The translations under genes were made by a program, and so were the position numbers. A DNA stretch of 64,000 nt from Asterochloris sp. CNOR1 (taxonomy: Eukaryota; Chlorophyta; Trebouxiophyceae; Trebouxiales; Trebouxiaceae). The stretch spans positions 3,038,001 to 3,102,000 of the forward strand of contig OZ017752.1 in the NCBI GenBank assembly GCA_963969365.1. The letters run 5' to 3'. Each line of letters starts with the position of its first letter. The first letter of the stretch is position 1. The notes under the pieces were generated by a model that searched no databases, was not told where the DNA came from, and worked only from the letters and a program-made list of their open reading frames with translations. Below, in pieces: positions 1,257 through 58,500 of this stretch.

Positions 1257-2381
1257 TCAGGTGATACTGATCAGACTGTGCCCTGCAGTTGCTGTGGACG
1301 CCTCATGAATTGCTTTGCACAACTGTTCACGTTGTCTGGGGGATAGATAAAATCAGGGCGTCTCAAGAAGAGGGTCCACCACAAGTCTGTGGTGGTCAGG
1401 CACTCAAAAGAAAAGGACTGGAGGTCGGGGACACACTAACTTTGCACGTCAGACTGGTGAACGGCGGCCGTTGAAGTCCCTGCTTGGGCTCTTTGTTTGC
1501 GACCTGGGTTGGGGATTGAGCGGGTCTGCTGGGGAGTCTGACAGTGATGTGGCGTTCAAGAGGTCCTCCTTGTCCGGCGCAAGTTTGTTTGAGAGCTTTG
1601 GGGGTGCCCTGCAAGCCAGCACTCAGCAGACTAGCCGCGCAGGGCTGACCTGGGAACCAGGCTGACACAATTGAACTGTCCAAGCACAGAGCATGGGGCC
1701 CCTGCTCACACACTGGGCTGCCAGGGCAATGGCCAGACAGAAAGGGCTGCCCTCATCCGGACTTGAAAGTGGCTGACATGTGGTGGGGGAGGCAACACAA
1801 ATGTTGTTTGGCAAGTAGGATGCCACAGCAGGCAGCTTGCAATACTACAGACCAGCATCTATTTGCATGACCAAACTCTACAGGCTGCAACGCCTGCTAC
1901 AGACTGCTCAAAGAGGCTGACAGTAGGTCTACAGCAGGAGCATGCACCACTGTACCCCTGGCTCAATTGATGACTGACTTGACAGAGCTGTACGCCTGCC
2001 AGCCCACAGTACGCGCAAAGGGGCTGACAGCAGGGCCCTTCACAGTGGAGGCGCACCAGGAGCATGCACTGCCAGCTCCCTGACTCACTGGGAGGACTCC
2101 ACTTTGTAGGCCACCATGCCTGCCACTTCAGAAACTCACAGAGAGGCTGCAAGTAGAGCTCTTCTGTACCGTGGAGGCACAGCAGGAGCATGCACGCAGG
2201 CTCCCTGGCTCACTTAGAGGGCTTAATTCCATATGCCACCGCGCCTACCACTTGCAAGGAAGGGCACAGGCCGAGCTTTTATAAGGGAGGCACACCAGGT
2301 GCATGCAGTGCCAGCTCCCAGCTGGATGTTTGCTGTCAGCGCTGCACCCTCGTGCCTGTCAGGTAGGGCGTGCTCCCTGGC
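1257..2381. repeat. Intergenic spacer with degenerate copies of the transporter's last exon end
   Basis: No gene is seen here. A 14-base direct repeat (GATACTGATCAG type) sits at the COX6B stop, about 1247-1275. From about 1960 to 2345 there are three or more degenerate units holding a copy of the terminal part of the neighbouring transporter gene, including its stop region: about 2079-2145, about 2204-2262 and, weaker, about 1966. The true exon is at 2382-2432. Each unit also carries a GGAGGCRCACCAGGAGCATGCA-like block (about 2045, 2173, 2285). Confidence 0.7.
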
Positions 2382-4935
2382 TCACTTGGAGGACTCGACT
2401 CCATAGGCCACCATGCCTGCCACTGCCAGGGCCATGCCAGCCAGCTGCCTCTGGCTGACGGTGTCCCCAAGGAAGGCCCAGCCGCCGACTAGCACCAGTA
2501 TGGTCTTGCTGTGCCCCAGAACCTGCATGCGAGCACAAATCCACTCAGCCGATCTGCCAGCCTGTCGCTTGAGCAGCGTTGGCTACTGCTGCATGCCGGC
2601 ACAGTCCACTCAGCTGTCGCCCTGCCAGCTGCTTGAGCCAGGATGGTTTTGCTGTGCCCCACCTGCATGCCAACTCACTGAAGTCCTCAGGCATAGTTGG
2701 TGCAGCTCAGGGCCCATGTCACTCAGATTTGACCTAGACCGTGTCCCTCTTAGGGAATCAGGGGTTCTACCAGCACCCGGGAACCCGTTGTGGCACAGAC
2801 CAATCAATTTTGGGCCACTCTCTTGCTTGAGACAACGCTCAGCAGAGATCCGGATCTGTGCTGGATTTGGCTTGAAGTGCTGGGCTGTGCCAGCCCCGTC
2901 CATGGCACCATGAAAGCACAGCTTGATTGGCAGTCACCAGGGTCATGGTGGAGGCCTCGAGTGCTTCAGGTGCAGCCATCAGCTAGGTGAGGCCTCACAT
3001 TGCACTGGCAGGCCTTCCCACAGCAGAGCAAGTGGCTGGAGCTGTCAGAGTGCTCAAGGCCCAGCAATCAGCTAGGCAGGGCCTCACATCTCACTGGCAG
3101 CCTTGACGGTGCCAGAGCCACACAGAAAGGGCCGCCTGCCTGCCCACCTGGAAAGAGACGGCTGAGAAGCGACCCAGGCACATGAACTGGGACACATTGA
3201 CGAAGACGGCGCAGCCGCAGCTGATGGACAGGATGGTCAGGGCCGGCACGTTGACCTCGTAGTTGAACACCCAGAGGCCGCTGACCAGGCGGTCGATGAA
3301 GGGGCCTAGGAGCAGAAGGGTCCATCCCTGCAACCAGAGCAGTAACTCTGCTGACTAAGCTGAGCCGGTGTGACCTCGCCAGCCTTAACGCTCCCAGGCC
3401 AACTTACGGTGTCTGCGCCCTCACTACAAGGAAGATGAGCAACAACTTGTCCGCAGGGCAGTTCTAGACAAAGCTGTGCCACCACAGTTGTGGCCAGGCA
3501 CTGACCGCCATGTAAACTCTCAAGGACAGCGTGACATATGAGACTGCTTGGGTGGAATGCAACCACGCATGCTGTCGATAGCCTTGGGGCACAGGGCAGC
3601 AGGCAGCAGTACCTGTGCGGGCGCTGTGTTGGACAGCAGCTCGTGGGACGAGAGCTTGTGTTTCTGCTGCATGGTGCGGCACAGGATCTGCTGCATGCCT
3701 GACGACACGACCGACATGCCGGCCACCAGCAGGCCCCCTGTGTTGCTGCTGACATGGGTGTCCGTGACAGTGCTGCAGCAGGAGACAGCGCTGGTCAGGG
3801 GTGCAGCAGAGCAACAGGCATTTGTCAAGGGAGCATGGGCCATAGGGGCAGCCCGAATCCAGCCGCTCAGCACAGCGTCATGCGGAACCACAGGCGCCGG
3901 CAGCTGCGCAGGTGGCCGCAGCACGCCCTCTACGCGTGTGCGGCGGCGGGGCAGAGCTGCTGTCTGTTGCACGGATCCAGGCATGCCGGCAGTGCACTTG
4001 ATTTTGCCCCTTGAGAGGCCTGGAAAAGAGCAGCCTGCATTCATCGCAGAGGTCCAGGGATGACAAGCGGCTCTCTTGCTTCCCTGAAACTCACACAATG
4101 GCGACTCCAGTGATGACCACCATGACAGCTGCGATGACGCCTCGCGTAAACACCCGCCCCAGCCACACTTTCTCCACAACGCAAACGAAAGGGATGATCA
4201 GCAGCTTTGCTATCTGCAGGGGAACAATCAGTGCCTGTTGCTGTCAACAATGTTTCACAGTGCAAGATCTGTCAAGGCTGATCAAGGGTGCGTTGGCAAG
4301 GCATGCCAGGCGTGTCCAGGCCAGCCTGGGCTGTGTGTGAGTTCACCTGGTAGAAGCCAACGGGATTCAACATGAGGGAGAGGTTCAGAGAAACAATGGA
4401 CAGATTAGCGGTGGCAGTGAATAAAAGGAGGTCTGCAGCACCAGCAAGAGCGAGTCTGAGTGGCACTTGTGTGCAGCAAGTCAAGCCAAGAAGGGCTGCA
4501 GACGCAGGGTGGTGGCTACAGAGCAGATTTGTCTCAAGAATGACATTCCTGCAGACATCATGCGAGCCTACCCTGCATTGGCAGAGCGACGCGCTTCACG
4601 CCGCCCAGGCTCTGAGTCACCCAGATGCTGAGGGAGCAGACAAGGTAGTGGAAGGCGCACAGCGTGGTGGCTGCAGATACGACAAGAACACTGTTGACAT
4701 AACAGCTACTGTCGCGACTTCGCATGCTTGGTCCAAGGGCCTCAGTGCCCAGCCAAGGCAGCACACCAGGGGCAATAGCGCCCAGGGGCTCACCATAGCG
4801 AAAGGCATAGCCTGTGGTGCTCATAAGGATCTTGTTTACAAAGATGATGAACACAGAGCTGGACACGTTGCCAAGCCAGGCAACGCCATCAAGCAGGAGC
4901 TTCTGCTCTGGCCGCTGGCGCTCCTTCATGTGCAT
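2382..4935 (-). CDS. Nucleotide-sugar transporter (TPT/DMT superfamily)
   Basis: Seven exons: 4935-4794, 4670-4572, 4432-4347, 4213-4095, 3772-3613, 3327-3148 and 2522-2382 (TGA), all phases matching, giving 308 residues, the usual length. The protein is a hydrophobic Golgi/ER-type antiporter of the triose-phosphate-translocator fold. Landmarks are NKILMSTTGYAFRYATTL in the first TM pair, ANLSIVSLNLSLMLNPVGFYQ, IAKLLIIPFVCVVE, SSGMQQILCRTMQ near residue 190, and the C-terminal VLGHSKTILVLVGGW. These are closest in memory to the plant UDP-xylose / UDP-uronic acid / UDP-rhamnose-galactose transporter clade; the exact sugar cannot be read. The first in-frame ATG after an upstream TGA was taken as start. 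The gene is divergent from RPN5 across about 440 bp. Introns beside the last two exons contain degenerate exon-edge copies. Confidence 0.9.
2523..3147. repeat. Intron of the transporter with duplicated exon-7 edge
   Basis: The acceptor side of exon 7 plus upstream intron (about 2505-2578) is partly repeated at about 2590-2680; compare the TTGCTGTGCCCC...CCTGCATGC blocks at 2507-2530 and 2650-2672. A second pair (about 2940-3005 and 3045-3110) shares CAATCAGCTAGG...GGCCTCACAT...CACTGGCAG, with several differences. Confidence 0.6.
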
Positions 4936-5373
4936 GCTGCCTGGCTGCTGTGCTGCCGGGGCACCAGATGAATGGTTCTTGGACCTTGAGGGGCGCCGCA
5001 GTGGCGCGCTTGATCCCAGTCCTTCCAGAATGGGGCTACCTCAGCCAGCAGGGTAGGTGCTGCAGGCCTCCCATGCACAGGGCAGGGGCTACCTGATCAA
5101 TCTGCAACCGACTGTGGCTATTGAGAGTGGCTCCTGATCACTTCACAGAGAGCTATCAGAGGCAGATCGCCCAGCTGTGGGCTGCAATTTGCAAGTCGGT
5201 TTGAAATTAGTGGGGTGCCTTTGACATGCATAAACCCCGACTAAACTCAAAAGCTCTAACTTTTGCCCCTCGCAGAGCTTAATCCGCCGAGACCAACCTG
5301 GTGGTGACACCTTAGGGCCCCTGCAAAGTTCGGCTCCCAGTCCTTGAGCAGTCATCACACCAGCCCCATCAGC
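4936..5373. promoter_or_regulatory. Divergent promoter region between transporter and RPN5
   Basis: About 440 bp separate the two start codons. By position it must hold both promoters and 5' UTRs. No TATA box or named motif is convincing. Confidence 0.4.
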
Positions 5374-8300
5374 ATGGGGGACCTGGGAGAGTTCACAGTA
5401 GCCAACATTGCAATGGAGGAGGACAAGCGTGAGGAGAAGAAAGGCACAGTGGACAGGACCAAGCTGGAGGCTGACATTCAGGCCAATGAAGCGCTGGCTA
5501 AGGAGGTGGGCATATAGATGGGAGACCAAGGTCCCCATCATGCAGCTCTGCATCAGTGGGATGGCAGGCATCCAGCAGGTTCTGTCCTTAGCAGACCCAG
5601 ATGTTGCACTGGTCGATCTGCGACGCTCACCCATCTGAAGCATGGCCGCTTATAGAGGGAAGACCCCTGGGCCTGCACATGCGTTGATTGATTTGCTCAA
5701 TGCTGCAGCCTCCCCATGCAAACATCAACCCTGGGTGGGCATGCAGGGCAAGCTTTCAGAGGCGCTGGAGGGGCTGCTGGGTCTGGAGAAGCAGCAGCGC
5801 CTGGCAGAAGACATCACAGGCACCAAGATGGCCTGCACAGCCATCCTGACAATCCTGCGCGAGGCTGGCGACTGGAAGGGCCTGAATGAACACATCCTTC
5901 TGCTGGCCAAGCGCAGGTCGCAGCTGAAACAGGTCAGTCCTCCAGGACCAGCAGGCAGCCCGGCGAACAGCAGACCCTGGCAGAAGACTGCAGCGCCCCT
6001 GCAGCCCAGGCAGACTATAGGCAGCGCTGCGCCCTGCCTGTGTGCTCACAAGGCTCAAGCCGTCTGCTGCCTGCTGTGGTGGGGCCTCATTGATGGCTGC
6101 CGCCTGCAGGCTTGTGCAGGCATCTGTGACCCAATGGCGGCTCTGCAGCAGTCCATGGCCGCTGCTGTCCATACGCTGTGCCCTTGTTTGCTGGCCAGAC
6201 CGTGGGCAGTATGGGGTATCAACAGCCCTCCTGCATCACCTGCCATTGCAGGCCTCGCTGATTAATGTGGCCTGATTCAAGCATTTGAGCAATTTGGCCC
6301 ATTGTGCACACCATCTGGTGTTGCTGCTGCCTGCAGGCTGTGCAGGCGTTTGTGCGCCAGGCAATGAGCTATGTGGACCAGACCCCCGAGCAGGAGACCA
6401 AGGTCGAGCTCATTCGCACACTGCAGTCCGTCACAGAGGGCAAGGTGAGCTCTCATGGGTGCTGGCCCCTTTTCCACGCTAAAGAGAAGCAAATCTATGC
6501 ATGCTGGGGTAGCATAACAAGCTGAACACTGCCTGCAGAAGGCGTTATGTCCGCATGACCTTGTATTCTGAAAAGCTCACGATGCTTTCTGGGAGCTGCA
6601 CCACATCAGCACTGAGGCGGCAGCCTTTCTTTTAATGGTCCTCTCGCTGCAGCACTGCATGCTTGGCATCTCAAGGATGTTGTTGAGGCTTCACATCTCT
6701 TTTGCTGCATCTGCATGGGCTTTGCAGAGGTGCAGGGCACAAGCATGAAGCATCCTGCTGGCTGGTGTGCAGATCTTTGTGGAGATTGAGAGGGCGCGGC
6801 TCACCCGCAAGCTGGCGCGGCTGAAAGAGGCCGAGGGCAACATCACCGAGGCAGCCGATGTGCTACAGGAGGTGGCAGTGGTGAGCAGCAGGCATCGGGA
6901 GAAGAAAAGGGGTCCTGAATGGACATGACACCTGTCTTGAATCTGCTGCCTGCAAGTGCTTGGATCCAGGCATCGCATCTGCCTGTCACATTTCAAATCC
7001 TCATTCTTGCGGGGGGTTCAACCCCAATGCCGCCTGAACCATGCCTCACAACTCCAATGGCTGATGCGCTTACACAAGTCCCTGCGCACTGCATCCCCAT
7101 GCCTGGCGTGCTGCAGGAGACATACGGCGCCATGGCCAAGACGGAGAAGATCGCATTCATCCTGGAGCAGGTCCGCCTCTGCCTCGACCGTGGAGACTAC
7201 GTCAGGTCAGGCCGCCACAGTATATGGCATCTTGCGAGTGTCAGCGTGCTCCTGATCCACCCCAGCATTGGCGAACCTTCTGTTGCCTCATGCTGTGGGT
7301 AGGTGGACCTGTACAGCTCCCAATGCCTGAGCAGGCCTGGAGGGCCACAGGCCACAGTCTCTTTGGTGCTGGCCATTCAACAGCTTCCAAGCTGGCTTCC
7401 ACAGCTATTGACGGGCTGCCCTGGGACTGATACCAGGTGGCTGCGTTTAGGGCTTGGGGTTTAGGGTTTATGCTGGCCAAAGCGTAGCCCTTCAGGCTGG
7501 CTGCCACAGCTCTCAACGGGCTCCCTTAGGACTGGAGGACAAGGCTGCGTGGCGTGCAGGGCCATGATCCTGGCCAAGAAGGTCAGCCCCCGGGCGTTCA
7601 AGGTGGTCCCCAACAAGAAGGGGGAGGCTGCCGGCGAGATTGGCATTGAGGGCACCACCATTGAGGCGCCCGAGGAGGTGGGCCAGCTTCGTTCCGGGGC
7701 CGAATGGATTGTCAAAAGTGCCAGGGCCGAATGGATTGTCAAAAGTGCTGCAACTGAAGGAATTTACATGCACTTGGGCTTCAGGGCTTTCTTCCTGCGG
7801 CACAACCCCAGCTCCAGCTCAGCCAGCTGTCACCTTTGCGCAGCGTTTGATGCCAAGCTGTGGGTGTGTGCTGCTGGGCAGTGTCAGGCTTCTCTGTGAA
7901 GCACAAGACCATAAGCGCAGAGTTCAGTGTTTGCCTCCAGTCCTGACAGGGTCAGAGACCACTGCATGCTGCAAGGCACCCCTTCTAGAGCAGTTGGAGT
8001 CTCTGCAGGTCTACATTGTGATGCTACAAGCAGTGCTGTAGATAGGGCGACGCATGTGTGTGAGATAAAGCAGGTTCACTCTGAACGGAGCTAAAGCTGC
8101 CGTACTACAACAAGGTCATCTGCAACCCCTTCTGTAAATCAGCAGTAAGGTCAGCACGATGGCCCTGTGTGCTGCAGGGCACCCCCACCCTGGAGGAGCT
8201 GAAGCTGCAGTATTACCACCTGCTCATACGCTACCACATCAATGCCAACAACTACATCGACGCCTGCCGCTGCTACCGGGCCGTGTACGAGTCAGACAGC

Positions 8301-10217
8301 ATCAAGGATGACAAGGAGAAGTGGGTGCCGGTGAGTTTTGAGCCTGGAGAAGTCGCGGTGTTGAAACAATGGTCGCTGCCACCTGCGAGGCTGCAGAAGA
8401 GGTCTGATGGTTTTTGGTGTCAACGATGAAACAGCGGAAGGACGACTGGCCTGCTGCCTGTGGGTGTTGCAGAAGAGCTGCTGGAGGGTGGTCTCACTGA
8501 AGAGGCGGCTGATGGCCAAGCAATCTGCTGCAGCTGCTAGAGAGGGTCTCACTGAAGTGGCAGCTGAAGGAAAAGCGACCTGCTGCCTGCAGGGTTTGCC
8601 ATGGGGAGGTTCAGTCCTGTCACCTGAAGTGGCAGCTACAGGCGTGTCTCTCTGCTACCCTGCAGGTGCTGCAGAAGATCTGCTGGTACGTGGTCCTGGC
8701 AGCAGCCAGCAGCGATCAGGTGACCCTGCTGCAGATGACGGCGGCTGACAAGAAGCTGGACCAGCTGCCAGCCTACAAGGAGCTGCTGCAGACCTTCATC
8801 ACCAAGGAGGTCAGCCCTCTGTCTTGCTGCCCCTGTGCCGCCAATAGACAGTTACACTATCATCTTCTGTGGCCTGTCAAACAGCTCTGCTGATGCTGTT
8901 GGTACTGCTGGATGGGGCTTTCAAGAAAAGCAAGGGTTGACACGGCAGGGGGGACTACAAGTCAGACCCTGGGCACATTGACTGTTGACCCTAGCTCCAA
9001 ACTCTGGAATTCAGATGCCCACTCTGATTGGGGCCTGAGGACACAGGAGCCCTGGTTGCAGGCACTGTGCTCCTATAGCGCACCCTCTCTCACAACCCCT
9101 GTGCTGTGCCTGGCAGGTGGTCTACTGGGATGCCCTGAAGAAGGCGCAGCAGGGGGAGCTGTCATCGCAGACAGAGGTGTTCGGCGGGGAGCAGGGGCAG
9201 CACCGCCTGAAGGACTTCAAGTATGGGCCTGCACCTTGGCAGCAGCTGCATACAGCGTCGTAACCACAGGCTTCACACTGGCTGGGGCGTCATACATGCT
9301 CATGCTCATGCTGACTCCAGCAGCACCGAGATGTCTTGCACATGACCATAAGTGGCTCTCATGGCGGAGGCAAATGACTTGGTAGTAACAAATGTGTGCC
9401 CACCTCAGCCAAACGCTGTGTGCCCAGCTCAGCCTAACGCTCCTCTATGGTGGTCAAGCCAGGCATGACTGTTGTGTTCAGCTCATCTGTGCTGTGGAGC
9501 TTATGTGCCAGGCTGCAATGAGCCTGTGTGGCTCGTTTCATGCCTGTGAGCTGCTAGCCACTATGTCTGACAACATCATCATGCTGAACACCGTCTCATG
9601 TTTGTGTATTGATTGGGCTGCAGATTGCGTGTGGTTGAGCACAATATCCTGGTAATCAGTCAGTACTACAGCCGCATCACCATGCAACGACTGTCGCAAC
9701 TGCTGTGCTTGAACGCTGAAGAGGTGAGCCAGAGCACACTCAAACTTGCTGTTGCCAGCATGCCCAGCCTGCTGTGCATTAGTTCGCACTGCTGCTGCTT
9801 GGCAGCAAGCATGCCTTCAGGCGGTGCCCCAGGTCAGGCACCTGCTTTTGCCCAGGGCTGCAGCCTGAGGTGGGTTTGCTTTGCCTGCTGCAGACTGAGA
9901 AGCACTTGTCGGAGATGGTGGTGGGGGGTCAGCTTTATGCAAAGATCGACCGGCCAGCAGGCACAGTGCGCTTTGCCAAGCACCCTGAGCCAGAGCAGCT
10001 GCTCAACAGCTGGTCAAACAACATCACCAAGCTGCTGAATGTAGTCAACCGCAGGTGCGCCACCCCACAGTGCTTGCCCCTCTGCCTTGTTTGAGTTGCG
10101 TCACTTTTCTCTCCTAACATTGCAGACAGCGGGTCACAGTCCTTTCCTGTCTGCAGCTGCCAGCAAATACAGAAGGAGTCCATGGTACATAAAGTGCCGA
10201 TTGGCACCACTGCATAG
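5374..10217 (+). CDS. RPN5: 26S proteasome regulatory lid subunit RPN5 (PSMD12)
   Basis: PCI-domain scaffold subunit of the 19S lid. Twelve exons with consistent phases: 5374-5505, 5747-5932, 6337-6444, 6773-6880, 7117-7205, 7560-7677, 8178-8330, 8666-8809, 9117-9220, 9624-9723, 9894-10054 and 10157-10217 (TAG), about 487 residues. This is slightly longer than the human (456) protein because of an insert ([11 protein letters not shown] region, exon 6). Helical repeats occupy the N-terminal two thirds. The PCI/winged-helix part reads [19 protein letters not shown], then [11 protein letters not shown] and [15 protein letters not shown], closely matching the family. The last exon ends in QKESMVHKV, a conserved tail. 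Start ATG at 5374 heads an open exon beginning MGDLGEFTV; a second ATG (5413) is possible. The gene converges with SPT2, with stops only 101 bp apart. Confidence 0.96.
7370..7559. repeat. Intronic duplication and telomere-like tract in RPN5
   Basis: Two related blocks of about 50 bp (about 7380-7430 and 7490-7540, both CTGGCTNCCACAGCT...GGGCT) flank a short tract at about 7444-7471 containing two TTTAGGG units, the plant/chlorophyte telomere repeat. The second block leads into the acceptor of exon 6. Confidence 0.6.
7697..7749. repeat. Tandem 27-bp repeat, two copies
   Basis: Two nearly identical 27-base units (7697-7723 and 7724-7749) in the RPN5 intron after exon 6. Confidence 0.9.
8380..8665. 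repeat. Copies of the RPN5 exon-8 acceptor edge in its own upstream intron
   Basis: The start of exon 8 (8666: GTGCTGCAGAAGATCTGCTGG...) is mirrored at about 8464-8497 (GTGTTGCAGAAGAGCTGCTGG...GTGGTCTCACTGAAG), and more weakly at about 8390 and 8525-8600. Each copy is preceded by CCTGCTGCCTG-like intron sequence. Confidence 0.75.
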
Positions 10218-10243
10218 CTTCAGGAATACATGTCTTATTTCAT

Positions 10244-10318: not shown

Positions 10319-13300
10319 TTAATGCTGCTGTTTGAGGCGTTTGGCCTTGGCTTGCTGCCTCTCCATCTCCAGGCGTTCCTCTTCGAGGTCAGCCTGGCGA
10401 GCCAGCTTTGCACTGCGCCGCTCCTCGGCCTGCACACATGATTGCGTGCTGGGCCTTGTAAGCGGGGACGTCAGACAAGTGAGGGTCGAGCTGCTCAGCA
10501 GAGGGATGCATTGTATGCGGAGCAGGCACATGTTGTCACACAGCGCCAATGCAGGATGAGCATGAAGGAGCAAGGCAACAGCTGCATGCAATGCAAAGCT
10601 GACACACAGTATTCTTGCTCATGGAGGTCACCTGCATGTCTGCAAACGAGGCCTCCATGGAGCGATCGTCCATCTCAGTGTCGCGGAACCTGCATGGCCT
10701 AACATCATGACTTCAGCTCAAATTACCCAACTGATACCACGCCTGCCGGCCTAGAGATGGCCTGAACAGGCGGCTTGACCAGTGAAGGCAGCTACCCTTG
10801 CCTTTGGGACACAAAGTTGTTGAAGCTCACCGTGAGGGGTTGTACCCTGTCATGCTCCTCAGCATACTCCGCCAGTCCTGGGCATTGTCATCGTCAATGA
10901 AATCATCGTCGTCCTCCTCCTCATCATCCTGCTCCTCGGGAGAGGGGCGCTGCCGCTTCACACCAGACCGCTGCTGAAGTGGTGGCCTTGAGCTGGGGCG
11001 CTGCTGGGCTGCAAGTGGCGCGCCTTTGCGGTGCTGGGCGTCTGACCTGTGCAGATCGTGCTGCCCATCAAAGCGCTGCCTGCAGAGGGTGTGTGACTCA
11101 TGTAACACATGGCTGGGGCGGGAGAAAAGGTTGACTAGGTTGTGTTATAAAAGAGCTGCCTGCAGATGATGAGCAAGATCTCTGATACACGGCTAGGGCT
11201 GGAGGAATGGTCGTGCAGATCGTAGTGTCACTGGCCGCAAGAGCACTGCCTGCAGAGTGTGTGCAGATCCTCAGGTGCACGACTCGGGCAGGAGGAAGGG
11301 TTGTCCTGGTGGTGCTACCACTGCCTCTCAGTGCTACCTGCACGCAGCAAGCGGTGGAGTCCACTCTGCAGGGGGAGGAGGAGATGTCCAGGTCGTGCTG
11401 CCTGTAGCAACCTGAATGCTGCCTGCAGAGGTGCACATTGCTCTGTGCAGTCAGAAGCAGGGCAAAGGCAGGGGTGAGTGATGGCTGTGGGTGCCTGCCA
11501 CTGCGCGTGGAATTGCTGCTCGACTGCAGCTTGACTGGCAAAGGGTGGATGCAGACAGGTACTCAGCAAATGTGACAGCGTGCTGGCAGGCCCAAGAGCT
11601 GGGGGCTGCACACTGACTGCTGGCAAGAAGCGATCTCAGACACACCCACCCCTCCTCAAATGCCTTGCACTGCAAGATACCTGTCTGTCACCGATCCTTG
11701 GTGGGCCTTGATAGTTTCGGCACCCCCCTGAGCAGGCTGCGTCTTGGGGATGGCGCCCTTGGGGGGGATGGCACCTGGCGGCCCCTTCCACTTAGGCGGC
11801 CCTGCAGGCACTGTCAGCCACTTACGCAGGTGTCGATTCATTTGCTGGCTTGTCGGCAGCCTGGCGCCATACATTGGCTTCGAGGCTATGGAGATGCTGA
11901 TACGTTGGCTAAGGAGATGGTTTTGGCTGAAGAGCCTGCCTGCACGCTGCTGGCTGTGCTCCTTGCCTGTGTGCACTGTTGTCTGGTATAAGTTGCAGGT
12001 CTTGAGAGGCACCTCCCACAATGCAGCATTGCGGAAAAGCTCTGCAGTCACAACCTCCACTGCTAAGGGGCCCCTGCTGCAGCCAACACTGTCCCCAGCA
12101 CTGCATGAACCATCACCATGCAGCACTTGCCTGAGCAGGCTAAGACGCCAGCAGAGCAGCTGCTGCACTTGCAGCGTTGCTGCAGGTAGGTCAGCCCCAC
12201 TGCAGCACAACAAAACCCAGGGGTGCTGTGACAGCAGCTGTCTGCCTCACTGGTGCCCATGCTTGTGAGGTATGTACGGCAGTGTGGGCAGAGGAAGTGC
12301 TTTCCACGACACAAGCGACCAGTCCCTGTGAACGCAGACAGTCAGAGACTGAACCTGTATTATTCACCAAAACCCTGCTGTCACGTGTTGACCTAGTGCA
12401 CAGGACTCACTTGGCTGCGTTTTGTGGGTCCTCTTGAAGGCCTCCAGTGCAGCCTGCATGCCCTGGTCTGCTATCTGGCGTGCACTGGGCCCCATCGCCT
12501 GCACAACAGACGCACACAGTAGCCACGTGTGCATGCAGGTAATCTGCTGCTGCCTGCTGCCTCTGCCCGCATGTGTGGTGGCAGTAATTGCTTGGCAACA
12601 GGCTTTGCACCACGTGCTGTGGTGCTGGCACCGCATTGCACAAGCAGATGACCAGCCCACGCCCCACCGAGCTTGAGTCTGATCTCTAGTTGCACTACAT
12701 TCTGTCACCAAGGCTTTGCTGCAGCAGCAGCTTGCGCAGGGGTTGCTGCACAGGGCAACAGCCAGCCAGGTGCTGGATCAGCAGGCAGAGCAGCCACTCT
12801 GCGTCTGTGCTGTACCTGAGGGGAGACAGCATCCTTCCGTGCGAGCGCAGCCTTCTTGCTTTTGCTTGGAGCCCGCGCATGGGAGGTGTCGCCCGCGCCG
12901 CCCAGCAGGCTGCCGCTGGTCCTGCGGCGGCGCGGCTTGCCAGCCAAGGGGATCGCCTTGGCGGCCGACTCAAAGGCAGCGGCGTAGTCCGGCTCGGGCG
13001 TAGGTGCAGCGTTCTTCAGGGGAGGGGTGGAGGGGCGGCGGGTGGGGGATGGGGCCCCTCCGGGCGCAGGCGCAGCCGCCGGCCGCTTCAGAGGCGCCTG
13101 CTGCTGCTGCTGAGCTGCTCGCTGTGCCTGCTGCGGCAGGAACAGCTGTGGAGCAACAGGAGACGCAGGCTGGGCCCCTGCAGCGGAGCCATTGGTTCTG
13201 TGGGCCCGGTGTTGCCCCTGCCCGTTGGCTGCGGGTGCCTGCTGCGGGCCCTGCGGGCGCCGTTGCTGTGGTGCAGCAGGAGCCCCTGCAGAGGCCGGCC

Positions 13301-41251: not shown

Positions 41252-41309
41252 GAAGGTCGATCTAGGCACTTTTGGCGCGCTAGGGTTTTTGGACCTAGCA
41301 ATAAGGTCG

Positions 41310-45400: not shown

Positions 45401-48400
45401 CCCTGTGGCGTGTGGCAGCCACAGGAGGACTTCTGCTCCTCGACTGCATCCCGCAGCTTGCAAGCAAGTAGAGAAGCGCTTGCTACTGAGGCCTTGCAGG
45501 GCACGGAAGTTCAGACAATATGCTGTCACAGGAGCCCACAGCTTGGCGCTATGCAAATCAACACGTTTTAGAGATTGTGCCCCTGTCTGCCTCCACAGGT
45601 GTTAGACCACACCGGCAGCATCCAGGACAGGCGGCTGGCAGCCGCTGCTCATCTGGAGGCTGCCCTTGTGGCCCACACCTACAGGGAGCCCCAGGCAGCC
45701 GCAGACAGCCTCACTGCGGCAAGCTCCGCCCTTGGAGTTGATATCCAAGTGCAAGGTGAGGGATTGGCCCCTCAACACAGCAAGCTCTGCGCTACTAGTA
45801 TGTCTTCATGTAAAAGGTGAGGGAGCGACGGCTCAACATGGCAAGCTGTGCCCTTTGGAGTTGATATCCAAGTGGAAGGTGAGAGGCCAGCCCCCCAGTG
45901 AGAGTGGTTTTCAGATAGAGGGGCCTTCTTGAGGGCTTCTGTGTATGGGCCAAGTTGTCAAAGTCTGCTACAACAGGGCCATCCCTGTATCTCTTGAACG
46001 CAGATTGGACCACATCATGGTGGGCAACACCCCTACATGGGCCGATGAGCTGAGCCTTCAGCTCTGCCTGCTGGCTGACTCCTCGAGTGTCTTACCTTAT
46101 GACACAATCACGCTGACCGAGTCCACGCAGTTTCGCGGTGCTGTAGGCGCTCTTGGCAAGCGCACAGTGCACCAGGTGGACGCCAAGGCGCAGCTTGTTG
46201 TGCGGGCAGGCACAGAGGAACCTGCACGCGCCACAGAAGAGGACAGTGGCGACGAAGCTGCTGAGTTGGATGTCGCTGGGGAGGGAGCAGGCGGCGCAGT
46301 GCAGGTCAGATTCCCTGAGCGCTGTCTGCCCGTCTGCCACCTGGACTGCAGTACCTCGAAACTTGAGCACCTCCTCCTGTGTGGAGCCAGCGGAAGTGCG
46401 TTTCTCATTCACTTGTCCAGGCCTCTCAAGGCACCACCAGGGCAACCTGCAAGAGTGTTAAGCAGCGAGTCGTAGGACATTGCAGTCACCACTCCTTTGC
46501 AAGTCAGTTGCTGTCCTCATTGGAACTTTCCATGCCTGTTTGACCTTGGCACGGCCCAGGCAGCCCCGTGGAGCTGATGGCAGTGTGTCTTATCAGATGG
46601 CTCTGACAGCATCAGGATGACCTGCAAGGATGTCACATGTCAGGCAGCAGGTTGATGAACACCAACTGCCAAAGCTCCTGCTCAAATACATTGCTGTCCT
46701 AACTTGGACCGTTTATGCCTGCTTGACGCTGAGGTGGCCTTGCCTTACACACTTGTGGGCTCTCTGACTGCCAAGGCTTGCCCTTGGCAACAATCAGTCA
46801 GCCCGCAAGAGTGCCATGGGGGCGCGCAGGGAGTTGTGTGACATTTGCTGCTAAGCAGGGGGGCCAAGACTTCACCGCAAGTGCATTGCCATTCACATCT
46901 TGTCGCTACGTGTCTGTTTGCAGACTTGGTCGCAGCAGGGCCACCATGGTCGCACAACAGGTGCATCGCTACCTAGACCTTGCCGCCCGTACATGCTTGA
47001 ACCCCTTTTCCCATTGCCCCCTTGCCCTGCAAACCTCGGTCAATCTCTTCCTTCTGAGCCTGCCCCGAATGTGCTGCAGGGAGAGATGAAGGGGCTGACC
47101 ACCGACTCAGATGTGCTGCCGGCACCCCAGCTGGTTGGAGAGCCTGGCGTGGCCCTGCAGGGCCCTCTTGGCTCGGCCCAGCAGGCTCTGCTGCTGGCTA
47201 TGGCGGAGCAGGTCAAGCGCAGCACCTCAGCAGGTGAGGCAGGCACCTTTGCAGCAGCGCTGGATCGGCAAGTGCTGCTGCCTGACAGCGAGCTGCATCA
47301 AGGCCCGCAGCAGTGCTGGTGCTTGAGTCAGCATGCGCTGGTAGATGGTGAAAGCAGCAGCACATGTTGTCAAAAGTGCAGTGTATATCACCTCATGGCC
47401 GAGCTCATGAAAACAGTGGTGTGTGCAGCTGTCCCTCTTTCAGATGTCTGGCCTCCTCCACGTCCAGATGTGCAGGCAGACCTTCCTTGTCTGGTTCGGT
47501 GTGACCACAGCTGGTGTCTACACAGCTGGACACCAGCTGTGTTTGAGCTGTGCGGGTCAGGCAAGCAACTGATGTGCTGCAGGTATGGCAGTGGGCACCT
47601 TGCATCCTCTCAACTTGACGTGTCTCCAGGTTGTGGCGGCCGCGCAAAGCGCAGCCATTGCTTGCTGAGGCTTCTCTGACCGACACTTCCCCTCTGGCCT
47701 GCAGACGTATGGCCGCCCTGGCAGGTGTGCCACTTTGCAGGCACCCTTCTGCTGTTTACTGCTTCCCCTCTGCTGCCTGTGGACCAGCTGCAGGTCCAGG
47801 GACTTGTGCCTTCACAGACGTACTGGCGCCTTACGCTGCTTCCTCACTGCTACCTGCACAGGAGCTGCACGCCTGGCAGATGGCGCTGTTCAGCCTTCGC
47901 CCCGTTTCTGACATGCCTGCTTGAGATATGTGCTGAGCCTGGCGGACAGCGAGCAGCATGCCAACATTCGAAGGCTCCATCGCAACACATTGCTCCCCCA
48001 CTGCTGCCTGCAGACGAGCTGCAGGCCTGGCAGATGGCTTGACAGCGCCCACCTGCCTCACACCGCTTCCCCACTGCAGGCAGCGGCCTTCTCTTGCTGC
48101 CTTACTCCTGGCAGCTGCCTCACACTGCCCCCCCGCTGGTGCCTGCAGATGAGCTGCAGGCCTGGCAGATGGCCCCCTTTGCAGACGCCCTGCTGGCACA
48201 GAAGCGCTCGCGGCCCATGCTGCGCCTGGGGGCCCGCCTCCTGCGAGCGCGCCACGAGCGAGGTCGCACCCGCACGCTGGAGCGGTCCCTGGTGCAGATG
48301 CAGCAGGTCGTGGAGGCGACAGAGCAGCTGCAGCCACCTGTGGCATCCCGCATGAGGTGGGCAGTCAGCCTTCACCTTGATAGGAGTGGTGTCTTGGGTC

Positions 48401-51400
48401 TAGGTCTGCTGAGGTGCAGCACATCGTGGAGGCGACAGAGCAGCCGCAGCCACCTGTGGCATTCCCGCATGAGGTGGGCAGTTAATCTTCACCTTGATAG
48501 GAGTGGTGTCTTGGATCTAGGTCTGCTAAGCTTAAAGGTGCAGCAGGAGGCAGAAGCCACGCAGCAGTCGCAGCCGCCTGTGGCATCTTGCATGAGGTGG
48601 GCAGTCGATCTTCATTTTGATAGGAGTGGTGTCCTGGGTCTAGGTCTGCTAAGCTCCAAGGTGCAGCAGGTCGTGGAGGCAGCAGAGCAGCCGCAGCCGC
48701 CTGTGCCATCCCGCATGAGGCGGGCAGTCAATTTTCACCTTGATGGGTGGCTAAGCTTAAAGGTGCAGCAAGAGGCGGAGGCCACGCAGCAGGCGCAGCC
48801 ACCCGTGGCATCCCACATGAGGTGGGGGGCCAAAGGTGACCTCGAGAAGGGGGAGTGGTGTGCTGGGTTCAGGCCTGCTGAGCTTGATGGTGCAGCACGA
48901 GGTGGTGGCCTCAAAGCAGGCACGGCTGTCTGTATGCGCCAAATCATGGCAGTAGACTGGCGGCGTTTTGTTAGGGGTTATGATGTTGTTGTGGGTGCAA
49001 AGGTGCAGCAAGATTTCATGGGGCTACACACTACAGAGGTGCAGAAGAGTGCGTTGTGGGTACAAAGGTGCAGCAAGATGAGGCCAGCGAACGGTTGCAG
49101 CCATCTGTGACGATGCGCATGGGGTGGATGGCCTCATCCAAGCTCAGGCTGTGCAGGTGGTGTCTTGGCTTTGGGTCTGGAGCAGAATCAGGGTGGTTTG
49201 GGTCCTGCTGAAGCTGTGCTGGCTGCAGCAGCCCTGACAGCTTGCATGGTCTTCTCATACTCAGCTGGTGGCAACGCCTGTCCAGCTGACTGTGACGGCT
49301 AAGCGCAGCATCCAGCCTGGGGTTAGCCAAGTGGCAATGCAATGGCCAAAGCAATGCTGACGCTGAGCATCAAAGGCCTTTTCTGCTCTGCACGCTCACT
49401 TCCTTCCATACCTTGGCATGCTGGCGTCTTCAGGGACTGCAAGGCTCACCGCCCAGCGACAGTGCTTTTCTGCAGGTGGGGTTCACAGACAGCTTCCTGG
49501 TATCAAGCGGCTTCTCAGTACTGGACGCTCCCCTGCCAACTGCGCTTTCTGTCCACAGAGGGCCTCCCCTATGTGGCAGCCTTGAGTGCATCAAGGCTGG
49601 CTTGCAACACTTCTTGTCCTGCAGGTGGGCGTTCAGTGCAAACTTCCCGATAGGAGCAGCCCTGAGAAAGGAGTTGGGGGAGCAGCTGCTGGCAGTGGGA
49701 CTTGTGGGTGAGGCGGGGACCAGCAGCTGTTCCGCTTGCCCAGTGTACTGTGGGCTCGAGGGTTGCTGCCTCTGCTTTGGGGTCTGGGTTTGTAGGAAGG
49801 CTACCTAGCTACCCTGGTCACAAGAAATCAACGCCTGTTTGCTTCTGCAGGTGGGCTCCTCCTCCAATCTGGCTGGAGCCTGGCTGGGTCATGGCCTTCT
49901 CTAGGAACTGCAGGGCTCAACTTGGTTCTTGATAGTTGGAAAGCAGGCACAGGGTGCAAAGCACGTGTTGCCTGTGCTACATGCAAAGCAGCTGCTAGTG
50001 CTGTGCGAGCAAAGCGCGCAAGAAGGGCACAAGAAAGGCAGGCAAGTGCCGGGAAGTATGCTGGGTTGATGCAATCACACCTTGGTTGTGGCGCATGCTG
50101 GGCGGCTGACTGGTCACTGCTGGTGAGTGACGCTGGGGCTCGCCAGCAATGGTTTCAGCGATGGTGGCGGGCATGTGACATGTGCAACGACTGCTGGAGT
50201 CTGCCAGGCGGAGAAGGGACCGTCTTCTGCATCTCTGTTTTTGAAGCTGCCCTGAGCGCCCGCCCAAGAGAGAGCTGCCTCAGTGCAGGCACTGCAAGCC
50301 CAACCTGGGCCGGAGCGCTGTGGATGCTGCCATGTGCCCTGGTCAGTTGTGCATGCAGGCGCCGTGACGAGCCCCATTGTTCTCAGCTAGGGCATGCACT
50401 TGCGTCAGGTCTACCTGCAATGCTGCTGCAGTGTGCCAGTTGTAGCATCCATCTGGGGGGTCCTCGTCAGCCAAGCTCCATCATTGGCTGACAAGCTCCA
50501 CCACTGTGCTGCAGGTGCTGCGATGAGCCTGTTTGAGCCCCTGGAGCTGTGGGACGCCCTTATCCTGTGCTACAGGATGCTGCAGAAAGTGCCTCAGGCC
50601 AAAGCGCTTGTCCTGACGCGCCTGCAAGTGAGCCTGCATGTGGTGGAGACATGCTTTCTGATCTACTGGCCAGCACTGGTCAGATTGCTTGACAAAGACT
50701 GATACTGTGGTAAAGCAGGAGGGTGCAGCTTGCACAGAATCCTACACGCGGTGACAAATCTGGTCCTGTACACACCTGGGCGGCACATAGTGCATTCCTT
50801 GACATGCATCGATGCTGTCTGAAGCCAGAAGCGGCAGCTTTCACAGAAGTCATGGCCATGAACACTAGTGTGGAGTTCCCAAGGACCCATTGCAATTGTG
50901 GCACATTCCTGCCTGCCTGGACATTGCCTCCTGCATCAGAGGTGGGTCCTTCGTCAGGGGAATGGGCTGCAGTTCTGCAGAGATACAGGCCTTCCCATCA
51001 GAATCTCCTGCAGTCAAGTTGCAAAGGCCCTGGGCTGCTGCTGGCAGTGCTGCCAAGTCAACAGGAGAACCCCCTAGACTCTTGAAGCTCATGCCTTGTA
51101 CATGTGCCTGCCACTGCCTCGTCCAGCATTGCGCTCTGTGAAGTGACAGCGTTCTGCGGTGCAGGTCACCCCCAACGATGCTCGCCTGTGGTGCTCCCTG
51201 GGCGACCTGACTTTGGAGGACGCTCACCTCCACACAGCCTGGGAGCGGTCGGGGCACCGCAGTGTGAGGGCACAGCGGTCCCTCGCACGCTCTGCCCACC
51301 GCCAGCAGAAGTACGCCGAGGTGAGATGCAGCGCTGGCCCTGGCTGTGGTCTGCTGGGGCAGGGATGGTGGGCTATGCTGCGGCAGCCTGAGCCGTGTGC

Positions 51401-54400
51401 CTGTGCCTGGTGTTGTCTGCTGAGCTTTGGAATGCTCCTCTTGCCATCAACTCTCTGCACCCTGAAGTTGTGCCTGTGCCTGTTGCTGTCTCTTGTGAGC
51501 AGGGGGGCCACTCTTTTCAGCAACCCAGTGCCTGCTGAGCTTTGTGCCCGTGCCTGCTGCAGTCTGCAAAGCACTGGGAGGCTGCGCTTGCCATCAACCC
51601 CCTGCACCCTGAGGGTTGGTTCGCACTGGGCTACTGCTGCATCAAAACCCAGGACTACACTCGGGCATGCCAGGTCAGTGTTCAGTTGCTTGTGAGCGCC
51701 GCTTTCTGCAGTGATGCAGGTCAATGGGGCAACACAGGCCAGCCTGTGTTTTCACCTTTTTTTTGGGCACATGCCTCCTGCCATGCATTGACACCACAGC
51801 ATGTAGGTTGCGCAGTTCAAGTCAGGCTTTGAAGCTTGTAAGAGCCCTGTATTGCCTGGCTTTGGCTTCAGTCTGATGTGCTGTGTTCCGTGGCTGTTTC
51901 CTGTGACATGCAGCAGGTGACCAGAGCAGGTCTTAATGACCTGCCAGTGCTACCTTGCTACAACGCTCACCCCCTCCCTTCTGCCTGCTAGTCCTGCATC
52001 TATGCTTCACATCAGCACAGCAGTCAAACCAGCCTCTCATACGAGCCTGCCTTGGCTGAAGACAGTTGGGGACGACCAGGTGCACCATCCACCCTGATCT
52101 TGAAGTTTGAGAAGCACAGGCGGCAGGCATTGTGTGACTACAAGAGCGCTGCTCTGTGCGTGGAAGCTGCCAGCGTCCATGTCCACCGCCTCTGGGAGGC
52201 TCAGGGGCTATGCAGCTGAGCACTGAAGCAGGTTGCCCACCCAGCAGTAGGGCCAGGCTGTCGATACGCCCAGCACCGTAGGAAAACCTGGCAGGGCCTG
52301 GATAGGCTTTCTGACTGATTCGGGCCTACGGCTTGTGCAGCCTCTGCCCCCACCACCACCTGCCCCACTAGAGCCCTGCAGGGTTCCAGGAAGGGGAGAC
52401 CTCAGGTTGGCCCAGAGTCTACACCAGAGTCTACACCTGCCCATCCAGTCTCAAACCCTGCTGCATGTGCCCTGCAGGCCTTCACGTCCTGTGCCCAGCA
52501 AGAGCCCAGCACGCCTCCGGTCATAAGAGCTGTGATTCCAGCAGCCCATCTGCGGCTGCTTGTGGCTGCACATAGTGCCCCTGTAGGCCTCCTCACGTTG
52601 CGCCCGGGAAGTGCCCGACGTCAGAGGAGCCCAAGGGTTGGCCGCGCCAATGTCTCCCACCCTGCAGTGCCTCTGCTGCAGGCGTTCACGCGCTGCGCCC
52701 AGCAGGAGCGCAGCAGGCCAAAGGTCAATATAGCTGCGGTCCCAGCAGCCCATCTGCGGCTGCTTGTCCCTGCACATGGTGCCCCTGGAGGCCTCCTCAC
52801 GCTGCGCCCAGGAAATGTCCGACATCAAAGGAGCTTAAGGGTTGACCGTGCCTATGTCTCCCACCCTGCAGTGTCTCTGCTGCAGGCATTCACGCGCTGC
52901 GCCCAGCAGGAGCCTGACAATGGAGAGGCCTGGAATAATTTGGCGGCCATCCACCTGCAGCTGCAGCGCCCAGCGGAGGCCTTCAATGCACTCAGTGAGG
53001 CGGTCAAGGTCAAACGCGACAGCTGGCAGACCTGGGGGAATTATGCTCAGGCGGCCGCACAGACCGGCCACTGGCTGCAGGCAGCCCGCGGGGTGCTACA
53101 GGTCAGCTCAGCAGGTGGCTGCCTGCAGAGAGGTGCTACAGGTCGGCCCCAGCAAGTGGCTGCCTGCAGAGGGTTGCTACAGGAGGCAGCTCAGCAGGTG
53201 GCTGCCTGCAGAGGGGTGCTGCAGGTCAGCCCAGCAGGTGGCTGCATCCAGACAGCATGCGGAGCCACAGCCTGGTTTCCTGTGTGTGGGTGTGCAGCTG
53301 TTGGCGGCCAAGCATGGGGGACTGCTGTAGATGGCCAAGCATAGGGAACTGGCTGCTCGCAGCTTGCAGGATATGCAGGTACGCTCTTAGAGTGCACAAT
53401 CCACCTTGGGCAAGGTTGCCAGTGAGAAGGGAGGGTACCCGAGTGGCCAGGGTCTGAGCCGTCTGCTCATGTGGCAGATCGCTGCAAAAACAAACCTCAA
53501 GGTTTGGGGTGCCTGCAGAACAAGAGGTGCATGCAAAGGGATAGAAGGTGGTCAGCCATCCTCACTGCCACATTGTGCAGGCACCGACTAGGACACCACA
53601 GGTGGGCAGGATCAGTGCACAGTGTGTTTGAGCTCAGGCTAAACAAAGGCTTTGCTGATTGGGTTGATGGGAAAGGAAGGCCGTCTACGTGTGCTGTGCG
53701 CAGGTGAGTGCAGGACACTGATGAAAGTGCGTCTGAGCTAAAAGAAGCCTGATGGCTGTGTGGCATGCGCACGTAAATTTACAAACAAAGCTGCCGCAAC
53801 AGACTGCAGGCCGGCTGTGGGCTGGTGGCGAGCTCTTCCTATGTCTCAACCCCTCAGCTGCCTTCATGCAATGTTTTGCAGGCAGTTCACCATTGCTTCC
53901 TGCCCTTCAGGCTGCTTGTGTGCGCCTTGGCCCCCAGCTACGTCCCTGTACTGGATGAACAGCATATGTAAGGCAAGGATGTCCCCTGACCGAGAATTTT
54001 CAACTAGGTGGCTGATGATGATACCTGATTGCTATGTAACCCTAGACCCTGATGTGCAGGCATTTGAGTCCAGCAAGGGGCAGCACCTGGAGCTGGAGGT
54101 GCTGACCCTGCTGGAGCAGCACCTTCAGAGGTGGCGCCAGGAGCTGGGCATCGACGGCAAGCAGGATGCTGGTGAGTGAAATTGCTGTTTCACAGGCATG
54201 CTGACCACCTGCACATTGGCATGCAGCATGAGAGTCAGGCCAGGCACAGCTGCAGCTGTGCAGATGCGGTCCAAACCAATGTGCACTCCCCACCACTTAG
54301 GGGGAGTCAGTGCCAAACCATTCTTGGATGCCTCTTTTCAGCAACACTCATCTGGCTGAAGTCACACTGCCCAACAGGCTGCCAAACCGGAGATTTCTGT

Positions 54401-55521: not shown

Positions 55522-58500
55522 CTAAGCCATGTATGTGATCTGAATGCCGCGAGGCTGATTCACCATAGGGCCCAACACTTCTTTGAGCTCCTCCAGCAGT
55601 GCATGATAGCAGAAGATGTACTGCTCCTCAGTCTGCACCATGCCGGCGCGCTGCTTGCGCAGGTTGGCCACCACGCGCTTCAGGTCCACAGCCTTGACCG
55701 CCGCTGCAAGCAGGGATGACCTCAGGTTGGCGACTCATGTTAACTAAGGAGGGAGGGGCAGCCTTGACCGCCGTTTGCAAGCAGTAAAGGACTAAACCAG
55801 TATGATCAATGTCTTGCTGGACACTGCTTCTAAGGCGGAGGGGTGCTGCTGATGATTGGGTCGTGGTGTGGTTGGTCGATTGAGGCTCTGCGTGTGCATG
55901 GACGACGATGCAGGGCCACTGCATGTTCCTCTGTTGTTTTGGCAGCTGAAGGTGCAGAGAAGCACTGCTGCTGCACTCACCCAGTGAGTTTACAGGGTCA
56001 AGCTTCCGCAGGCGGCGCATGACGATGTTGATGGTCTGCAGCCACAGGCAAAGCCTTCAGACCTCCACCTGGAGTCACTCAAGGGTGATTCCACAAAGTG
56101 GCCCACATCAGAACATGGCCTGCACCGTCCATCGTCATCATTGAGCTGAGCCCACCTTGCAAGTACAACTCTGCAGTAGTCCGCAGCACTACTGGCCTCT
56201 GTTCTGCCACAAGACATGGTATGCAGGACTGGGGTCGGCAGCCAAGCGGTGAGGTGACGATGCACAGCGCAGGCAGCTGGTGGAGTCTTGACAACAGTAC
56301 ATGGAGCCACAGGGGCAGGCTGCCCAAGAATAGCACTTTCAGATGGCGAAACAGGATGTTTCAGAATCCAAGGCGAGGAGCTTGCTAGGGTGCTGGAGAA
56401 AACCCAGAATCTGACCTGCTCATCTGCCTCTATGGGCCTCTGGTGCTGAGGCAGCCAATTTTCGCTGCTGCAGCTAGGGTCAGGGGCATGGACTCACCAG
56501 GAAGACGCCCGTGCGGCCGATGCCGGCAGAGCAGTGCACCACAGGGGGCCCAGCCTGTGGGTCGTCGGTGGCATCCAGCAGGCGAGCGAGCCGCCGCAGG
56601 GGCAGGGTGGTGCGGGGGATTCCCCGATCAGGCCAGGCATGGTAGTGGTAGTGGGTGACTGTGCGGCTAGCCCCAGATTCCCTGCAGGGAGAGGCAGAGC
56701 ACTTGACAGCAGCCAGCAGCGCAATACAAGCATTTGTGCCTGGCCTGCTGCACACTTTGAAGCCGTTAGGAGTGAAAGAGATCATAAGTAGGCAGTTCAG
56801 GCTGCTGTGTACAGCGGCGCAGAGGACCTGCAGGGGAACCTTCATTGAGGCTCAGAGACTCGTTACTGGTGGCCAAACTGTACAATTCACAAGCTGCTCT
56901 GCTTTCTTCTCTGACTTCGGGGCTGCACCCTGTGCGACACGAACCGCACAGTGGACGAAGGGGCAGGTTGCTTGAGAGCAAAGCGGCGAGCCCTGGCTGA
57001 GATGCAGGGGTGTAAAGATTATGTCACATGGACACTCCCAAAATCTTGAGAGCTGCAGGCGCTGCCAATGCTTGGGGAAGGCTCAAGGAGGAGCATCCAT
57101 TTGCAACAGCTACCCAACCTCCATTTTAAAGAGCCCCTCAGCTCTGCCAGGCAGAAATGAACCTGCCTCAAAAGGAGCAAGTCGCCCAGCTCACCTATGC
57201 TTGAGCGACAGAGAGCGCTTGGTGATGTCGCCATCAATGTCCTCCTTCTCAGTCACTGTGACTGACAGCTGACCATAGGCCTCCTCGCTCTGGAGCTGGT
57301 CAGGAAAGTAGGAGTGGCACTTCTGGCGCAGTTTGCCGTCTGCAGCAGGGCCAGCGGAGGCTGCTCCGTCATGACAGAAGAATGAGAGCCGCATTCTTGT
57401 ACATGCAGGACTCATTAACATGCAATGCCTTTCAGCAGCCCCAGCCCCTGCGACAGGCACGAGGCTGGCCTGCAATGCAGCACCCAATGAGGAAGGCTAT
57501 GCGGCCATCAACAGCAGAAGGTTTTGAACTAATGGCAGCCAGCATCCCTAAAAGGAGCCTGCTTTAGCAGAACGGCAGCACAACCAGCGGCTGTGCAAAG
57601 CGCCTGAAGGGGCTTGAGCTGCAGGCAGGTGAATTGCAGGTGACGGGGCTCATGACTGAGCAGGCCTCATGAGCAGCTGAACAGGGGTCATGACTGCCCA
57701 AGACGCTCACATATGTCAGCCTCCATGCAGCAGGGCAGCATGGCGACCAATGAGGTCCCCTGCTCATGACTGTCTAGGTTGCTCATATGTGTCAGCCTCC
57801 ATGCAGCGGGTCAGCAGGGCAGCCACTCATGGTCATGCTCATGAACAGGGCTTGTGACTGTCTGGCCTGCTCACACATGTCAGCCTCCATGCAGCGGGTC
57901 AGCATGACGACCACTGAGGTCCCCTGCTCCGCCACCATCTGCCAGAAGTCGGCCGTTGTACTGGCGAGGGGGCCCTGCGTGGCAATGTACTGGTAGGGAG
58001 GCTGCTCATTCTCCCTGCAGTCAGCACACTGAACACTTTGGCGGTGGTTGTGTTTTGTGTGCTTGTCAGCAACACAAGCAGCTGCCTGCATGCGCTCTTT
58101 GCAGCCAGAAGCTCAGATCCTGGCCGGGGGCCAGCAGCTGGGCTCCACATGCAACAGCCCCTGACACCCTGCTGGATGACAAGGAGGCATCTGTAGACGA
58201 CAAGCAAGCTGCCAGGACGGCCTGAGTGCGCAGGCTGCGGCAATGCGCACTGTCCAATGTGTCTGGAGGTGTGAGTTCTCAGCAGCTGTCAGAAGATTGC
58301 AGCTGACGAGGCCTTGGTGTACAGCAGGGCAGCTGTTGTACGTGTGCCTTGCACCGGAAGGACGCTGAGCCAGCACAGAATCTGACGTATATGCTGTGCA
58401 TGACTGGTACCCAGCTGCTGCATTGCCAGTAGAAATGCTTTGCTCGATACCATGCTGAGGCCTCACCTGCTGGTGAGAATGGACGCGTTAATGTAGTCGC

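What the first reader, a model, noticed from the sequence alone, without database searches (positions are those of the whole stretch)
1960..57915. Recurrent tandem copies of exon edges inside introns and flanks
In the transporter, RPN5, SPT2, the coiled-coil kinase, TTC27 and the phosphatase, an intron or flank carries two to eight diverged copies of the neighbouring exon's first or last 20-60 bases together with the splice site and some intron. Copies occur on both acceptor and donor sides. The real exon is kept in phase with the protein family, so the copies are extra. A locus-by-locus accident seems unlikely: a shared process, for example replication slippage or repair at CTGCAG-rich exon borders, may be adding exon edges and could be a route to intron growth or new exons. 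I know of no described system matching this exactly.
Basis: partly seen in the sequence, partly recalled or inferred. Interest (0 to 1): 0.85.

Follow-up and report, generated by a model that had tools for sequence, protein, structure and literature searches.

The report
Tandem duplications crossing exon borders
In this intron-rich nuclear gene cluster, probably from a green alga, short stretches of DNA have repeatedly been duplicated next to themselves, and many of these duplications straddle the edge of an exon so that a spare copy of the exon edge lies unused in the intron; this is a known kind of mutation, although it touches exon edges here somewhat more often than expected.

Summary
The window has nine predicted spliced genes. 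Local direct repeats far exceed controls: 33 pairs at score 46 or more, against 1 inverted and 0 in five shuffles. They form 31 arrays outside exon interiors; 15 of 31 straddle an exon border, all in the six genes named. Border-array copies are 65-95% alike, unlike assembly duplicates, and arrays do not resemble one another, unlike a mobile element.

Best reading: ordinary tandem duplications. When one crosses a border, the outermost splice site still gives the normal protein and the inner copy decays as intron. Splice dinucleotides in copies are kept as often as general divergence predicts (23 of 35; expected 22.2); introns show no general sign of birth by exon duplication. CTGCAG slippage is not supported.

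A border-biased process is therefore not excluded. A border-crossing tandem duplication is already described in potato. No genome or relative was available.

The parts
1956..2424 (-). Transporter 3' end: three copies of the last 39-49 nt of the last exon with the stop codon region and the start of the 3' flank; real CDS end at 2382
2495..2677 (-). Transporter last-exon acceptor (exon edge 2522) and one copy at 2619-2677
6096..6354 (+). RPN5 acceptor 6337; copy 6096-6133, weaker copy 6161-6216
8373..8695 (+). RPN5 acceptor 8666; three diverged copies in the intron 8331-8665
   Evidence: junction confirmed
11067..11431 (-). SPT2 acceptor 11079; copies at 11198-11317 and 11385-11431, and one 80 nt from the real site
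30597..31055 (+). Kinase donor 30625; intron arrays and border copy 31012-31055
31555..31949 (+). Kinase donor 31588; four border-spanning copies, 60-nt unit
45718..45897 (+). TTC27-like donor 45755; 2.7 units of 61 nt by TRF, one border-spanning copy 123 nt away
47571..48195 (+). TTC27-like acceptor 48149; four border-spanning copies (five), nearest 135 nt away
48296..49179 (+). TTC27-like donor 48356; largest array, 117-123 nt unit, five border-spanning copies
51383..51613 (+). TTC27-like acceptor 51563; 3.1 units of 74 nt; the AG is lost in both spanning copies
52426..52914 (+). TTC27-like acceptor 52886; copies at 52566-52709 and 52426-52506, 204-nt unit
53064..53255 (+). TTC27-like donor 53101; 4.0 units of 40 nt (83-nt double unit)
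55689..55784 (-). Phosphatase acceptor 55703; one 26-bp copy (weakest case)
   Evidence: no border-spanning copy
57660..57929 (-). Phosphatase donor 57875; two border-spanning copies, 76-nt spacing
2959..3104 (.). Example of an intron-only tandem duplication (no border), 89-nt spacing
14744..15146 (.). Array away from borders in the poorly modelled 5' part of SPT2, 87-nt spacing
24669..25168 (+). In-frame duplications (189 and 213 nt spacing) wholly inside a coiled-coil exon of the kinase gene model
25427..25545 (+). In-frame 51-nt tandem repeat inside the next coiled-coil exon

Best explanation
This is the trace of ordinary local tandem duplication with selective survival. Segments of about 20-200 bp are duplicated next to themselves in many places of this region. 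A duplication inside an exon mostly disrupts the protein and is lost. One lying in an intron, in a flank or across one exon border is tolerated, because splicing from the outermost donor or into the outermost acceptor (or the first stop codon) still gives the normal product and leaves the inner copy of the exon edge as new intron or flank, which then decays. Shown: the duplications, their positions, their divergence, and no retention of splice sites beyond general divergence. Inferred: use of the outermost site (supported by family alignment for RPN5), the mutational origin (slippage or repair of staggered breaks), and neutrality.
For: Direct repeats vastly outnumber inverted ones and shuffles. 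Arrays occur in all settings: 15 cross borders, 16 lie in non-coding DNA, 3 lie inside exons (score 38 plus TRF). All 27 self-hit pairs at E up to 1e-3 start within 465 bp of each other, so no dispersed element. Per base, the last 20 nt of exons are covered about as often as introns (0.096 against 0.064-0.106) and coverage falls to 0.02 at 60-100 nt into the exon, as survival of border-crossing units predicts (the deepest exon bin, 150-200 nt, rises to 0.35, which I put down to the coiled-coil exons). Copies keep the splice dinucleotide in 23 of 35 cases, 22.2 expected from 79.6% identity elsewhere. The same mutation type is described in potato (abstract) and reviewed (passages).
Against: Array counts show more border crossing than neutral placement predicts: 15 of 31 against 4.9, 6.5 or 8.7 (P 0.005); 15 of 21 BLAST-defined arrays against 4.3, 5.5 or 7.7 (P 0.0005) in the same calls. 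Simulated detection bias raises the expected fraction only from 0.25-0.30 to at most 0.33, and the exon part of copies is hardly more alike than the intron part (80.4% against 78.5%), so persistence bias does not clearly remove the excess. In the TTC27-like gene five of six main spacings (123, 135, 117, 147, 204; the sixth is 85, with a second pair at 123) are multiples of three, which pure neutrality does not predict; this was noticed afterwards and is not evident over all copies (11 of 23).
Confidence: 0.72

Rival explanations
1. A duplication process biased towards exon borders (or towards exons, with only the border cases surviving), for example repair of transcription- or chromatin-linked breaks at exon edges.
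For: 15 of 31 arrays cross a border; placement P 9e-6, annotation rotation P 0.002, automated arrays P 0.001-0.013 with all exons, collapsed-intron null P 0.005. Two exons (48149-48356 and 52886-53101) carry arrays at both ends.
Confidence: 0.2
2. The copies are used: alternative splice sites or repeated protein segments kept by selection.
For: 11 of 23 copies with intact sites lie a multiple of three from the real site; the arrays at 48356 and 52886 have an open frame, the exon's own by my reading, for up to 465 and 408 nt, within open frames of 355 and 341 aa.
Against: Splice dinucleotides are kept only as often as chance divergence predicts (23 of 35 against 22.2); 11 of 23 is against 7.7 by chance and copies of one array are not independent; in RPN5 and the TPR protein, use of the copies would insert residues into a conserved domain region (effect inferred).
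Confidence: 0.06
3. The introns were born by tandem duplication of exonic AGGT segments (the Hellsten type).
For: Exon-edge copies inside introns follow from that model (passages of PMC3443670). One intron, 31588-32166, which holds an array, scores above the 99th percentile.
Against: Donor and acceptor regions of the same intron are no more alike than those of different introns: mean 19.5 against 20.1, 1 of 53 at or above the 95th percentile. Copies include intron sequence of the real border.
Confidence: 0.02
4. Mobile introner-like element or assembly artefact.
For: Repeated sequence with splice sites inside introns.
Against: No similarity between arrays of different loci at E up to 1e-3; border-array copies differ by 5-35%, unlike assembly duplicates; three of the 21 TRF rows (568, 7697, 52412) are 100% alike and none of these crosses a border.
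Confidence: 0.01

Closest known systems
Potato RdRp tandem duplication crossing an intron-exon boundary (Ma et al. 2016, PMC4974935; abstract and outline seen)
   Same: A tandem duplication spans the border of an intron and the following exon, copying intron end, splice site and exon start.
   Different: In potato a new intron formed in the duplicated region; here the extra copies appear simply to lengthen an existing intron, and there are 15 cases on donor, acceptor and stop-codon sides.
[quoted passage not shown] Drosophila cases PMC2891723, passages seen)
   Same: Local tandem duplication supplies duplicated splice sites; exon sequence becomes intronic.
   Different: There the duplicated segment is exonic and makes an intron; here it contains an existing border, and the same-intron donor/acceptor test is negative.
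Internal gene duplication in eukaryotes (Gao and Lynch 2009; seen only as an entry of a reference list; not held)
   Same: By title: frequent internal duplication and intron creation.
   Different: Not compared; content not seen.

Membership tests
Local tandem duplication crossing exon-intron borders | Adjacent direct copies beyond chance | tested here: met
   53 direct, 8 inverted, 0 in five shuffles at score 38 or more
Local tandem duplication crossing exon-intron borders | Unit contains exon edge, splice site and intron | tested here: met
   35 border-spanning copies at 14 splice borders, 5 of them marginal
Local tandem duplication crossing exon-intron borders | Original product kept by use of the outermost site | tested here: inconclusive
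   Family alignment supports it for RPN5; no transcripts
Intron gain by exon tandem duplication (AGGT model) | Donor and acceptor regions of the same intron are copies of each other | tested here: not met
   1 of 53 introns at or above the 95th percentile
Introner or transposon | Related copies at different loci | tested here: not met
   All 27 self-hit pairs local, within 465 bp; one window only
Border-targeted duplication process | Border crossing above neutral expectation, also in young arrays | tested here: inconclusive
   Excess present, size depends on null; no power for young arrays

The most novel reading that the evidence does not exclude
In this lineage tandem duplication is biased towards exon borders, so that introns grow from their edges by repeated copying of the splice junction itself.
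Probability: 0.18. Interest if true: 0.7.

Novelty: new member of a known kind. Interest (0 to 1): 0.36.

Why it matters
It gives a dense natural sample of border-crossing tandem duplications: a simple way in which introns lengthen and in which spare splice sites arise without changing the protein. If the border excess held genome-wide it would point to a mutational hot spot at exon edges and bear on the question of how introns grow.

Tried and rejected
Rejected: dispersed element, general birth of these introns by exon duplication, CTGCAG slippage, selection to keep splice sites, assembly artefact (divergence). A first gene-finder run merged everything into one gene and was replaced by a stricter one, seeded with exons that I picked by hand (and two transporter exons). 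A Pfam scan of three raw frames of bases 1-10000 (-) found nothing. Searches for relatives: RPN5 and TTC27-like proteins in viral contigs, none; TTC27-like protein in prokaryote contigs, one spirochaete match at 26% identity that I did not use. A phmmer search of the 421-aa open frame 59022-60284 (-) against solved structures gave nothing. Paper searches. In the listings, some capped (for example 15 of 39 and 10 of 14,768), I saw titles and the starts of abstracts only; I noticed none on a border-biased duplication process. My first impression from the per-base profile, that there is no border excess, was corrected by the array-level tests.

Choices that affect counts: 9 of 121 predicted exons were dropped because they lay in or among copies (7) or in the doubtful 5' part of SPT2 (2); 112 remain, 78 of them called confident by coding score or by hand. 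Arrays wholly inside exons (3) were left out of the crossing fraction. Arrays were listed by hand, and some spans were extended after the border-centred search; one search repeats the test without hand editing. The P values come from different nulls on the same data and are not independent.

Full report
What was checked. The window has 55-60% G+C in 4-kb blocks and no held genome. I built gene models by an ab initio script and tested predicted proteins against Pfam and RPN5 against solved structures. That the organism is a green alga is an inference from gene style, not a test.

The observation. Local self-comparison gives 53 direct pairs at score 38 or more, 8 inverted (7 of them self-palindromes), and none in five shuffled windows. 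Grouped with the Tandem Repeats Finder rows, there are 34 arrays: 15 straddle an exon border, 16 lie in non-coding DNA, 3 lie inside exons. The 15 are in the transporter (2), RPN5 (2), SPT2 (1), kinase (2), TTC27-like gene (6) and phosphatase (2). The border-centred search shows one to five extra copies with the border inside them at each of 14 splice borders, 35 in all; five score under 36 and are marginal. The stop-codon border has three. RPN5 is the best proven case: the spliced protein aligns straight through the junction, while the intron holds diverged copies of the acceptor and the first codons of the exon.

Is the border special? Per base, exon ends are covered about as often as introns (0.096 for the last 20 nt; 0.064-0.106 in intron bins), with a decline to 0.02 at 60-100 nt into the exon. 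That profile is what survival of random duplications predicts, but it counts every intron copy and so hides the question. Counting arrays is the better test. Random viable placement in the present map expects 4.3 of 21 BLAST arrays and 4.9 of 31 arrays against 15 observed (P 3e-7 and 9e-6; with the 78 confident exons 3.6 and 4.0, P 2e-8 and 6e-7). Within each intron, with the aligned length as unit, it is 5.5 of 21 and 6.5 of 31 (P 2e-6 and 1e-4), and for the strongest 13 arrays 4.4 against 10 (P 0.0005; with ten TRF-only arrays 5.3 against 10 of 23, P 0.01). With introns collapsed and the spacing as unit, expectation is 7.7 of 21 (P 0.0005) and 8.7 of 31 (P 0.005); with odds raised 1.5-fold for longer persistence 9.4 (0.007) and 10.7 (0.05); two-fold 10.6 (0.03) and 12.3 (0.17); the 23-array set gives 0.015, 0.08 and 0.21. 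Rotating the annotation, which keeps clustering, gives P 0.002-0.005, and automated arrays without hand editing give 0.001-0.013 with all exons and 0-0.003 with confident exons. Simulated decay and detection, 5000 events in each of 12 settings, put the detected crossing fraction at 0.25-0.30 without exon constraint and at most 0.33 with it. So an excess of roughly 1.2- to 4-fold exists in this window; its size depends on the null.

What the copies do. Splice dinucleotides survive in 23 of 35 copies, 22.2 expected from 79.6% identity elsewhere; exon parts are 80.4% and intron parts 78.5% alike. Nothing here points to maintenance. Donor and acceptor regions of the same intron are not copies of each other in general: 1 of 53 is at or above the 95th percentile, namely the array-bearing kinase intron 31588-32166. 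The nine two-copy arrays that only TRF found double their unit with -2 to 3 nt of overlap (worked out by hand), which fits near-blunt duplication rather than slippage between 6-nt CTGCAG words. CTGCAG within 60 nt is 1.00 per array border against 0.67 at others, but 0.40 against 0.30 when the splice site is left out. Its higher density inside arrays (7.4 against 3.9 per kb) can follow from the copied acceptors.

Reading. Tandem duplication occurs in many places here, including coiled-coil exons where it is in frame (24669-25168, 25427-25545). Across a border it should be nearly harmless, because the outermost site still gives the normal protein, so such events persist and lengthen introns. A border-crossing duplication has been described in potato (PMC4974935, abstract), and tandem duplication is a reviewed route of intron gain (PMC3443670 passages; PMC2891723 passages). 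The kind is known; the density and the border excess are the interesting part and need a genome.

One loose end. In the TTC27-like gene five of six main spacings (123, 135, 117, 147, 204) are multiples of three; the sixth, at 53101, is 85, with a second pair at 123. Two arrays (48356, 52886) have an open frame, the exon's own by my reading, for up to 465 and 408 nt. Over all copies with intact sites it is 11 of 23, against 7.7 by chance. I treat it as unproven, but it leaves room for in-frame use of some copies.

Noticed in passing
48043-49110 and 52319-53344 (+): Long open frames (355 and 341 aa) run through the two largest TTC27-like arrays; these arrays may be or have been coding.
   Followed up: partly
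24669-25168 and 25427-25545 (+): In-frame tandem duplications inside coiled-coil exons of the kinase gene model (189, 213 and 51 nt spacing).
   Followed up: partly
34694-35659 (+): Long leucine-rich open frame next to the kinase with no Pfam hit at 0.001; possibly a separate gene.
   Followed up: no
37909-41251 (-): Nine-exon gene model with no Pfam hit at 0.001.
   Followed up: no
117-1256 (+): Three-exon model whose second half resembles cytochrome c oxidase subunit 6B by recall; not searched.
   Followed up: no
32858-43401: About 10 kb without any local tandem array at score 38 or in the TRF list, while the TTC27-like gene holds six border arrays: strong clustering by gene.
   Followed up: no
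568-614, 7697-7748, 52412-52437: Two-copy short tandem duplications that are 100% alike, likely recent, none crossing a border.
   Followed up: partly
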